Source of the DNA: Spirochaetaceae bacterium
Lineage (GTDB): Bacteria > Spirochaetota > Spirochaetia > Treponematales > Breznakiellaceae
Length of the DNA: 7,184 nt
Assembly: GCA_031284085.1 (NCBI GenBank)
Contig: JAITAM010000040.1
Location: 1 to 7,184, forward strand
Reading direction: 5' to 3'
Shown: positions 297-6,942 of the stretch, piece by piece
How positions within the stretch are numbered: the first letter of the stretch is position 1
Layout: each line of letters opens with the position of its first letter
Made by a program: the position numbers and the translations under genes
Notes under the pieces: model-generated
What the model was told of the DNA's origin: nothing
Seen by the model: the letters and a program-made list of their open reading frames with translations, nothing else
The model's database searches: none

Positions 297-542
297 TGGA
301 AGAAAATGAACCACAAGACCGGACACTTCTGAGGAGATAGGTTCTATTCGCGAGTAATAACGGACGAACAGGACTTCTGGAATGTGTATAGCTTCGACCA
401 GAACCCTGTTAAAGCAGGGCTTGTAAAAGAACCGCGTGGATGGAAGTATAGCGGAGCGTATCATCGGGAACATAGGATTACAAAGATTATCTCTTTCGTG
501 GATGACACGATTCTGAAGCCAGAACTGAAGATACTCCAATGA
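297..542 (+). pseudogene. REP-associated tyrosine transposase (RAYT, Y1 family), C-terminal remnant
   Basis: RAYTs are single-domain HUH/Y1 nucleases of the IS200-like superfamily that mobilise REP hairpins. This frame preserves the family's C-terminal signature: codons for NHKTGHF at 309-329, GDRFYSRVITDEQDFW at 333-380, NPVKAGLV at 402-425, then WKYSGAYHR, ending in TGA at 540-542. Family members typically read 'TGHfWgdRFYSrvi' here. In this copy the Trp position is TGA (330-332), consistent with a TGG to TGA change. Between FW and NPVKAGLV the spacer also looks a few residues short. Upstream of about 297 the similarity stops and a dispersed repeat begins, so the N-terminal half with its HUH motif is missing. 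It is broken and cannot make an active enzyme. The extent of the 5' end is approximate. Confidence 0.8.
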
Positions 543-546
543 ATCA

Positions 547-592
547 GGTCAGACCTGAGGTCATGTTTTCTAGACCTGAGGTCATGTTTTCT
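547..592. repeat. right REP-like flank plus 21-bp perfect tandem duplication
   Basis: GGTCAGACCT (547-556) repeats the left flank exactly. It runs into two identical 21-bp units, 551-571 and 572-592, each starting AGACCTGAGGTCATG. Each unit holds the palindrome GACCT-G-AGGTC. The pair lies just past the stop codon of the transposase remnant and belongs to the same GACC/GGTC family, so it is best read as the element's downstream REP-like end. Confidence 0.8.
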
Positions 593-3560: not shown

Positions 3561-3812
3561 CTATTAAGAGAGCAGCGAAAACACTGTGTATTTTAAGAAA
3601 TAAAGTTGGAAGAAGATTTTATCTTTCATCTTACATGATCCTGGCAAGTATATACGCAGGTATTAGTCGATTGAAGGTTGTTGTTGAATAACATTATAGT
3701 ATATCTTGCTGTTTTACCAGATGAATTCTACCAAAGAGCCGGCGCCAAAGAAATAGCGTAAAAGTAATGAATATGATGAATAATCGCATCAATGCTTCCG
3801 GTGCCATACCGG
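3561..3812. other. non-coding spacer between convergent genes
   Basis: AT-rich DNA between the terminator and the repeats downstream of lspA. No gene with a usable start was found. A 26-codon open stretch (3681-3761) from a TTG has no ribosome binding site. A short hairpin, TCCGGT/ACCGGA (3797-3813), touches the first 23-bp unit. No T-run follows it on the minus strand, so it is a poor candidate for the lspA terminator. Confidence 0.5.
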
Positions 3813-3859
3813 AGTGTGATACCTACACTGCCTAGAGTGTGCCGACTACACTGAAAACC
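3813..3859 (+). repeat. two units of the 23-bp AGTGT-N7-ACAC repeat, downstream of lspA
   Basis: Units 3813-3835 (23 bp) and 3836-3859 (24 bp) both have AGTGT at 1-5 and ACACT from position 13. That is the register and orientation of the large array at 6618-6904. The flanking bases differ from the right-hand units, so these are related but diverged copies. Degenerate traces (CACTAGGTGT, 3866-3875) continue into the last codons of lspA. Confidence 0.75.
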
Positions 3860-3867
3860 GTGCCGCA

Positions 3868-4383
3868 CTAGGTGTCGACCTTTCTGGCACGGCTGCTCTC
3901 AAGCCCTTCAAACACAAGCAGCACAATACAGCCGAATGTTACCGAAAGGTCTGCAACGTTTAAGATGCCAGTCCGCAGGTTCCCTATCCCTACATTGATG
4001 AAGTCTATCACCCTGAATTCATTGAAGAGCCTGTCCGCTAGATTGCCTATCCCGCCGCCGATGATGCAGCTTATGATTGCTACGCGGTAGACTTTGCCTT
4101 CTCGGAACATCAGATGCAAAATACCGATGATACATATAATTATTGGTATAATAAGAAGGAGCAGGTACTTTACATACACATTCCAGTCTGTTCCCATACT
4201 TAGGAATGCACCCGTATTCTCTGCATACCGAAAGATTAAGAGATCGTTCAATAACCGTATCGGCTCCCTACCCGACAAGTATTTTAGGGCGAGCTGCTTC
4301 GTTATCCTATCAAGAGAATAATTTGCAAGAAATATTACTGCCGTCATAATAATGAAGCGCCCTCTGCCTTGTAGTAATTTCAT
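3868..4383 (-). CDS. lspA: lipoprotein signal peptidase (signal peptidase II)
   Basis: LspA is an inner-membrane aspartyl protease that cuts prolipoproteins before the lipidated cysteine. From ATG4383 the protein has 171 residues (family about 160), with four hydrophobic segments near 10-24, 70-92, 100-115 and 148-160. Diagnostic motifs are present: LDRITK with Asp25, ENTGAF with Asn56, GGGIGNLADR (109-118), VIDFI with Asp127 and LNVADL with Asp145. Asp127 and Asp145 are the expected catalytic pair. The start is uncertain. ATG4383 has only a weak TTAGG ahead; ATG4347 would give 159 residues with AGAGGG 12 bases upstream; an in-frame TTG at 4464 would give 198. I chose 4383 because it leaves a normal positively charged N-terminus before the first membrane helix. 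The gene follows the helicase by 90 bases on the same strand and is probably cotranscribed. Confidence 0.92.
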   Translation of the reverse strand: MKLLQGRGRFIIMTAVIFLANYSLDRITKQLALKYLSGREPIRLLNDLLIFRYAENTGAFLSMGTDWNVYVKYLLLLIIPIIICIIGILHLMFREGKVYRVAIISCIIGGGIGNLADRLFNEFRVIDFINVGIGNLRTGILNVADLSVTFGCIVLLVFEGLESSRARKVDT

Positions 4384-4473
4384 GCCTAAAGCATACCATA
4401 GTCTCTCCAAAAAAGAAAGTAGCACGATGCCCTTGTGCAAGCCAAAGCCTGAGCCCCCTTCCAAAAAGACGGC

Positions 4474-6492: not shown

Positions 6493-6617
6493 ACTTCAAG
6501 TCTACCAAATTGCACAAAAAAAGGGAAGTGCAGGCCAGCCTGTGTTAAGTTTTTGGTGCAGGCATCGGGTGCATGATAGGCACTTAATAGGTAGAAACTT
6601 GGCGGAACAGTCGCTAC
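6493..6617. other. spacer between the helicase start and the 23-bp array
   Basis: This stretch should hold the minus-strand promoter of the helicase-lspA unit. I could not find a convincing -35/-10 pair. A run of A residues (6517-6523 on the plus strand) and TTGTGC (minus strand) are present but not properly spaced with a -10. No gene was found. Confidence 0.4.
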
Positions 6618-6904
6618 AGTGTAGGTGGGACACGAGTGCTAGTGTGTCAGATACACTCTCTACAGTGTTGGTGGCACACTCTAAGCAGTGTTGATACCAC
6701 ACTGGCATTAGGTGTAGGTGGCACACTCTCTAGAGTGTGAATATAACACCAGCCTTAGTGTGGATGTAACACCAGCCTTAGTGTGGATGTAACACCAGCC
6801 TTAGTGTGGATAGGACACGAGCCTTAGTGTGGATAGGACACGAGCCTTAGTGTGGATAGGACACGAGCCTTAGTGTGGATGTAACACCAGTCTTAGTGTG
6901 GATT
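6618..6904 (+). repeat. 23-bp tandem array, 12 units plus a partial one
   Basis: Units begin at 6618, 6641, 6664, 6687, 6711, 6734, 6757, 6780, 6803, 6826, 6849 and 6872, with a partial one at 6895. The period is exactly 23 apart from one inserted base (6710). Every unit keeps GTGT at 2-5 and ACAC at 13-16; the bases between vary. The left five units are diverged. From 6734 they become nearly uniform, in two versions: one with GGATGTA between the anchors and ending CAGCCTT, and one with GGATAGG and ending GAGCCTT. The half-sites alternate in orientation every 11-12 bp. The near edge is 126 bases upstream of the helicase start. Function unknown. Confidence 0.93.
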
Positions 6905-6942
6905 GCGTAGTCTAGGCATAGCGGGCATGGGGTGGTACGGAA

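What the first reader, a model, noticed from the sequence alone, without database searches (positions are those of the whole stretch)
6618..6904. 23-bp array with invariant, alternating GTGT/ACAC half-sites
In all twelve full units here, and in the two at 3813-3859, GTGT (2-5) and ACAC (13-16) are identical although the seven-base spacers on either side have diverged to many different sequences. A neutral minisatellite should lose anchors and spacers alike. The half-sites are inverted relative to each other and spaced 11 and 12 bp apart, close to one helical turn, so a dimeric protein could bind along one face of the DNA. The alternative is a transcribed chain of small hairpins. Anchors and period are read from the sequence; a binding role is inference.
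Basis: partly seen in the sequence, partly recalled or inferred. Interest (0 to 1): 0.8.

Follow-up and report, generated by a model that had tools for sequence, protein, structure and literature searches.

The report
Palindrome arrays beside HU-like genes
This stretch is one of many 23-base tandem arrays of small DNA palindromes in a Treponema-like genome; arrays of the same design sit directly beside genes for HU-like DNA-binding proteins in spirochetes and in gut Bacteroidales, so the array is likely a docking site for such a protein, which can be tested directly.

Summary
In the twelve units the eight GTGT/ACAC columns are the only invariant ones (96 of 96 cells), though both edge units have lost anchors. 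The layout recurs on 10 contigs of this genome and in 13 of 195 family genomes, this one included.
Anchors are not invariant elsewhere. With the units that led to each array left out, they deviate less than spacers in 19 of 27 arrays and more in 8, among them all four arrays of this genome's second family.
GTGT is not essential: sister arrays with the same plan carry CACA/TGTG, GATA/TATC and other complementary arms. What persists is a palindrome of about 15 bp, repeated every two helical turns or so.
The new lead is a neighbour: genes for HU-like proteins with an Ig-like domain. Of 13 testable HU genes found without using arrays, 11 have such an array within 100 bp, including 6 of 6 paralogs of Parabacteroides distasonis, each with its own palindrome. 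Background: 16 of 708 other genes at the 3' side.
Best reading: likely docking arrays for HU-Ig proteins, plus scattered orphans such as the window's, which has no HU gene. Binding is untested.

The parts
6618..6894 (+). main array, 12 units of 23 bp (unit 5 preceded by a one-base insertion), GTGT-N7-ACAC-N8
6595..6617 (+). decayed edge unit AAACTTGGCGGAACAGTCGCTAC: spacers recognisable, GTGT lost, ACAC changed to ACAG
   Evidence: aligned by eye to the C3 array
6895..6917 (+). decayed edge unit, GTGT kept, ACAC lost
3813..3859 (+). two-unit array, resembling the main array when read on the minus strand; just past the lspA stop codon
4474..6492 (-). pcrA/uvrD-like helicase gene; its start lies 126 bp from the array
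3868..4464 (-). lspA, signal peptidase II gene, beside the two-unit array

Best explanation
The array is a non-coding tandem array of 23-bp palindromic units that is likely a DNA docking site for an HU-like protein with an Ig-like domain, a protein whose genes lie directly beside arrays of the same design in spirochetes and Bacteroidales. Shown: the unit plan (arms of about 4 bp, 7 bp between them, about 8 bp of linker), arms kept better than the rest in many arrays, arm exchange between families with complementarity kept, dispersal through intergenic DNA, and the gene-array adjacency. Inferred: each palindrome is held by one protein dimer; 23 bp, about two helical turns, keeps neighbouring dimers on roughly one face; the protein reads the palindrome by shape as much as by sequence, because close paralogs sit beside unrelated palindromes; and the window's copy is an orphan site served by a protein encoded elsewhere. 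Array growth and loss by slippage or recombination would explain the copy-number variation and the decayed edges. What the bound array does (chromosome organisation, segregation, silencing, or upkeep of a selfish gene-plus-site pair) is not known.
For: phmmer with three HU-like proteins found 8 HU-like ORFs in 69 array loci, all within about 100 bp of the array (two of them, L045 and L079, are HU-HIG proteins for which Pfam lists no DUF4469); an HMM added two Tannerella genes, L039 and L060. Pfam finds DUF4469 together with an HU domain (PF14848 or PF18291) in 10 of 11 proteins run: L083, L094, L064, L252, L219, L152, L130, L186, L089, L044; the 74-aa L060 piece has none. HU genes found without using arrays and with room beside them: treponemes 4 of 4 (L252, L130, L152 at 3', L219 at 5'), P. 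distasonis 6 of 6, 5-43 bp past the stop by TRF bounds, faecal phage-collection scaffolds 1 of 3. Background: 16 of 708 ORFs of 150 aa or more at 3' and 9 of 724 at 5' in five treponeme samples; in two 50-kb P. distasonis pieces with 71 listed CDS the only two arrays of 20-26 bp lie inside genes. Same locus, swapped arms: L335 has CATGATAGCTATCATG-type units and its 58%-identical relative L343, before what looks by eye like the same downstream gene, has CCTCATAGGTATGAGG-type units, 3.9 and 3.7 copies. Among sampled arrays with a significant dyad, arms deviate less than the rest in 22, more in 5, equally in 4 (Wilcoxon p 3e-4). In two Tannerella loci an apparent intrinsic terminator stands between the HU gene and the array, so the array is probably outside that mRNA (by eye). 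Closest solved structure: 4FMR, putative DNA-binding protein of Bacteroides vulgatus.
Against: No HU-like ORF in the window at E up to 10, and in the fetched stretches of this genome's other GTGT array contigs only a 76-aa fragment on C223, not beside the array. Most array loci show no HU gene: 10 of 69 after the HMM, though several loci end close to the array. L331 and L332 have the gene without an adjacent array. Not counted: L240 (contig end), fragments L242 and L245 (no array), and L203, an HU-HIG-like ORF at a contig start with no 19-26 bp array in the TRF list. Short HU-family proteins mostly lack arrays: of 7 hits 5 were looked at, 4 without and L338 with degenerate 23-bp repeats by eye. 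Close paralogs L130 and L152 (76% identical) have unrelated palindromes, which argues against simple sequence recognition. Anchor conservation partly reflects how arrays were found: without the seed units totals are 144 of 1520 anchor cells against 473 of 2850 spacer cells, and 8 of 27 arrays go the other way. HU-linked arrays L328, L329, L330, L333-L335, L343, L089 and own L130 fold better than shuffles as RNA (z -2.6 to -9.5), so an RNA or terminator role is open there. No binding data exist.
Confidence: 0.5

Rival explanations
1. Selfish or neutral minisatellite: palindromic units grow and spread by slippage, recombination or template switching at hairpin arms, and the arms are conserved because the amplification itself needs them. 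No protein reads the array.
For: Many other palindromic arrays with periods of 21-23 bp fill the same genomes (110 of 163 sampled arrays of 2.5 or more copies). Sites occur almost only in arrays: 53 of 59 rows of a one-unit pattern, with 6 outside against 4 for the reversed control. Neighbours of this genome's own copies are unrelated. Anchors are not protected in 8 of 27 arrays without seed units. Private single-base changes hit anchors nearly as often as spacers once the three most diverse arrays are dropped (21 of 1824 against 55 of 3420, p 0.23). Spacer words assort at random in L072 (p 0.21 and 0.27), though not in L082. One spacer inversion is seen within L038.
Against: Does not predict the adjacency to one gene family in two phyla, or 6 of 6 paralogs in P. 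distasonis. With the diverse arrays included, private changes are rarer in anchors (25 of 2040 against 84 of 3825, p 0.008).
Confidence: 0.3
2. REP/BIME-like elements moved by RAYT (Y1) transposases, for which this genome has 34 hits.
For: All 13 array-bearing genomes have RAYT hits against 106 of 182 others (p 0.002; relatedness not corrected). The core of the RAYT flank motif AATCAGGTCAGACCT also occurs in 21-24 bp arrays.
Against: None of the 30 RAYT loci fetched, of 34 hits, carries the GTGT array. G086 and G122 have sister arrays and no RAYT hit (incomplete genomes). Three of six Bacteroidales array genomes have none.
Confidence: 0.1
3. A transcribed chain of hairpins, acting as RNA, for example as a terminator or a 3'-end stabiliser.
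For: Six P. distasonis arrays, L343, L089 and own L130 fold better than shuffles (z -2.6 to -9.5). Arm exchange between L335 and L343 keeps pairing. Between array consensuses the innermost spacer pair 6:12 is complementary more often than permuted (0.485 against 0.316, p 0.0035).
Against: Window array z -0.87 and -1.80, +0.90 for a part; L252 -0.86. No Rfam match at gathering scores in the window. Within arrays there is no covariation. In Tannerella an apparent terminator lies before the array.
Confidence: 0.1

Closest known systems
RepA_N replication iterons of Firmicutes elements (L049, L063, L071)
   Same: The same GTGT-N7-ACAC 23-bp geometry, tied to the gene of a DNA-binding protein (PF06970).
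   Different: Repeats lie inside the rep gene, not past its end; an unrelated protein. That they are iterons is inferred.
REP/BIME elements with RAYT transposases (PMC2817692, PMC3733652; passages read)
   Same: Short palindromes, extragenic, repeated in tandem, with a linked gene for a DNA-handling protein.
   Different: The linked gene here is HU-like, not a Y1 transposase; the period is fixed near 23 bp. A REP-type end tag was not looked for systematically.
Plasmid centromere arrays such as ParR-parC (recalled)
   Same: Tandem sites about two helical turns long, bound by dimers encoded next door.
   Different: No ATPase or filament partner was looked for; a different protein fold; copies scattered around the chromosome.
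HU/IHF nucleoid proteins (recalled), 4FMR as the solved relative
   Same: HU-type DNA-binding domain.
   Different: Fused Ig-like domain, several paralogs per genome in P. distasonis, and a palindrome array beside each of those six.

Membership tests
REP/BIME with RAYT | the same repeat flanks the RAYT gene | tested here: not met
   GTGT array in 0 of 30 own RAYT loci fetched
REP/BIME with RAYT | palindromic, extragenic, many copies | tested here: met
RepA_N iterons | array lies within a RepA_N gene | tested here: not met
   window array lies outside the annotated families; the nearest gene is pcrA
neutral minisatellite | all columns drift alike | tested here: inconclusive
   exactly the eight anchor columns are invariant in the window and anchors are below spacers in 19 of 27 arrays without seed units, but 8 go the other way
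structural RNA (hairpin chain) | folding beyond shuffles and covariation within arrays | tested here: not met
   window z -0.87 and -1.80, no within-array covariation; folding alone is met for several HU-linked arrays
HU-DUF4469 gene with cognate array (proposed here) | HU-like gene directly beside the array | tested here: not met
   none in the window; met for other GTGT arrays
HU-DUF4469 gene with cognate array (proposed here) | protein binds the array | not testable with these tools
   needs EMSA or ChIP-seq

The most novel reading that the evidence does not exclude
HU-Ig proteins and palindromic 23-bp arrays form a widespread chromosomal address system in Bacteroidota and Spirochaetota: each paralog carries its own palindrome array at its gene, recognises palindromes by shape, and scattered copies mark further sites for chromosome organisation or segregation.
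Probability: 0.3. Interest if true: 0.9.

Novelty: new variant of a known kind. Interest (0 to 1): 0.72.

Why it matters
A protein family with a solved structure (4FMR, deposited as a putative DNA-binding protein) would gain a DNA partner that can be tested at once in a cultured gut commensal. If several paralogs each own a palindrome array, bacteria may run parallel systems for marking their chromosomes. The arrays may also explain part of the repeat load of these draft genomes.

Tried and rejected
Rfam on the window: no match at gathering scores. RAYT ends as the source of the array: rejected for GTGT. RNA hairpin chain: not supported for the window. Spacer inversion as the general cause of variation: within arrays only L038 and a near-symmetric pair in L072, so not general. 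Viral contigs with five single HU proteins: no relatives, six short peptide patterns each. One search used wrong control spacing; one search is the right one. One search was meant to leave out seed units but had register slips (252 of 2152 anchor cells against 619 of 4035 spacer cells); one search repeats it in the register. In one search one protein (L094) was read out of frame; corrected. The window fragment 342-539 looks like the C-terminus of the genome's RAYT proteins by eye only; Pfam gives nothing. Papers: DUF4469 gives 0 papers. Searches on tandem palindromes and termite treponemes and on HU families were seen as listings and abstract starts; no listed title or abstract start describes such arrays. 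One listed paper with a single 'HU-HIG' occurrence (PMC11035120) was not opened. Of PMC13067680 passages were seen; they do not mention tandem repeats. A survey of HU/IHF clades is recalled, not read; the identifier tried was not held.

Full report
OBSERVATION. The window is contig C137, from its first base, of a 1.78-Mb, 247-contig genome judged 67.6% complete. The array at 6618-6894 has twelve units. GTGT and ACAC match in 96 of 96 cells, and these eight columns are exactly the invariant ones. Both edge units have lost anchors. The two units at 3813-3859 are real. In the genome GTGT-N7-ACAC-N8-GTGT has 92 strand hits on 10 contigs and none for the reversed pattern. Single-unit matches (AGTGT-N7-ACAC) lie almost wholly in arrays: six of 59 rows fall outside, against four rows for the reversed control.

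SPREAD. A two-unit pattern hits 13 of 195 genomes of the family, this one included; the reversed control hits 5. A stricter pattern with AGTGT hit only this genome among 58. A three-unit pattern hits 59 stretches in public genomes: Treponema MAGs, several Bacteroidales, some Firmicutes, a Methanobrevibacter and others. These were found because they have the anchors, so shared anchors between them prove nothing by themselves. In the three Firmicutes loci tested (L049, L063, L071) the gene holding the array is a RepA_N gene, so those repeats look like replication iterons.

CONSERVATION. I examined 27 arrays: 7 of this genome and 20 of the 59 stretches, chosen mainly for size (only 8 of the 12 window units were parsed there because of the inserted base). 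Anchors deviate less than spacers in 25; L061 and L084 go the other way. Since each array was found by its anchors, I repeated the count without the seed units and edge units: 144 of 1520 anchor cells against 473 of 2850 spacer cells, lower in 19 arrays and higher in 8, namely own C223, C132, C92 and C218 and L061, L067, L082, L084. So the contrast is strong in the window's own family (C3: 2 of 80 against 56 of 150; C234: 1 of 48 against 33 of 90) and in L072 (1 of 256 against 79 of 480), and absent in the genome's second family. Losses spread in places: GTGC in C223, GCAC in L084, ATAC in L061. Private changes are 25 of 2040 in anchors and 84 of 3825 in spacers, and no longer differ when the three most diverse arrays are left out. 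Spacer words come in near-random order in most arrays, L082 being an exception. Within arrays the spacer ends do not covary; between array consensuses the pair 6:12 does.

THE ARMS ARE NOT SPECIAL. The reversed control turned out to be a sister class: CACATAG-N-CTATGTG and variants plus an 8-bp linker in five other genomes, each of another genus. Own arrays on C130 and C132 use GATA/TATC and GTGG/CCAC with the same plan. In samples of five genomes, 110 of 163 tandem arrays of 2.5 or more copies have a period of 21-23 bp (counted; some 21-bp ones may be coding). Of 125 arrays of 19-25 bp, 31 are more palindromic than shuffles at p 0.05. Among 32 of these with a dyad at p up to 0.1 and at least 4 copies, the arms deviate less in 22, more in 5, equally in 4, and one had no non-arm columns and was dropped.

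THE NEIGHBOUR. A gene beside the G073 array proved to be an HU-DNA_bdg + DUF4469 protein. A search of 69 array loci with three HU-like proteins found 8 such ORFs, all at the arrays: L045, L079, L083, L066, L094, L089, L064, L044. An HMM over all fetched DNA added L039 and L060 of Tannerella, the own-genome genes L130 and L152, L252, L219, L186 and others, most with a 23-bp array within about 80 bp and with different palindromes. To avoid circularity I counted HU genes that were not found through arrays and had room beside them: treponemes 4 of 4 (L152 came in through a RAYT search, the others through sampled contigs); P. distasonis 6 of 6; phage-collection scaffolds 1 of 3. Left out: L240 at a contig end, two short fragments without arrays (L242, L245) and an HU-HIG-like ORF at a contig start (L203). 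Other ORFs in the treponeme samples: 16 of 708 at 3' and 9 of 724 at 5'. P. distasonis: two arrays of 20-26 bp in 100 kb, both inside genes, so none past any of 71 listed CDS. One of the six P. distasonis arrays (L333) is weak, with 24-bp steps. Short HU-family proteins mostly lack arrays (4 of 5 looked at).

SAME PLACE, OTHER PALINDROME. L335 and L343 are 58% identical HU-DUF4469 relatives before what looks by eye like the same downstream gene. Their arrays lie at the same spot, have the same period and nearly the same copy number, yet the arms read CATGATA/TATCATG in one and CCTCATA/TATGAGG in the other. This is the clearest sign that a palindromic array, not its letters, is kept. Close proteins may share a palindrome (L064 and L094, 82% identical, both GTGT) or not (L130 and L152, 76%).

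MECHANISM. The likeliest reading is a docking array for the HU-Ig protein, with recognition partly by shape. The model of the L083 protein has mean pLDDT 77 and pTM 0.50 and matches 4FMR first. Against it stand the lack of any binding data, the HU-free window and the strong RNA folding of several HU-linked arrays.

VERDICT. The refuting condition about random neighbours is met for this genome's own copies but not for the array type as a whole; the one about lost anchors is met for the genome's second family. The window's array belongs to the gene-array pair by sequence family and design only.

Noticed in passing
window 342-539 (+): Translation resembles the C-terminus of the genome's RAYT (Y1) transposases, a decayed fragment; Pfam gives no match.
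   Followed up: partly
own genome, 34 hits: An amplified RAYT family, copies flanked by AATCAGGTCAGACCT, many at contig ends; the core of the motif also forms 21-24 bp tandem arrays.
   Followed up: partly
window 551-592: A perfect 21-bp direct repeat, two copies, containing AGACCTGAGGTCATG.
   Followed up: no
L024 (C234) 3710-3970: A GTGT array lies between the larC-like and larB-like genes, so inside a probable operon.
   Followed up: partly
L049, L063, L071: GTGTC-N5-GACAC 23-bp repeats inside RepA_N genes, probable replication iterons with the same unit order in several species.
   Followed up: partly
L335 2205-2322, L343 1994-2122: The whole array is enclosed by a further inverted repeat and folds as one long hairpin.
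   Followed up: partly
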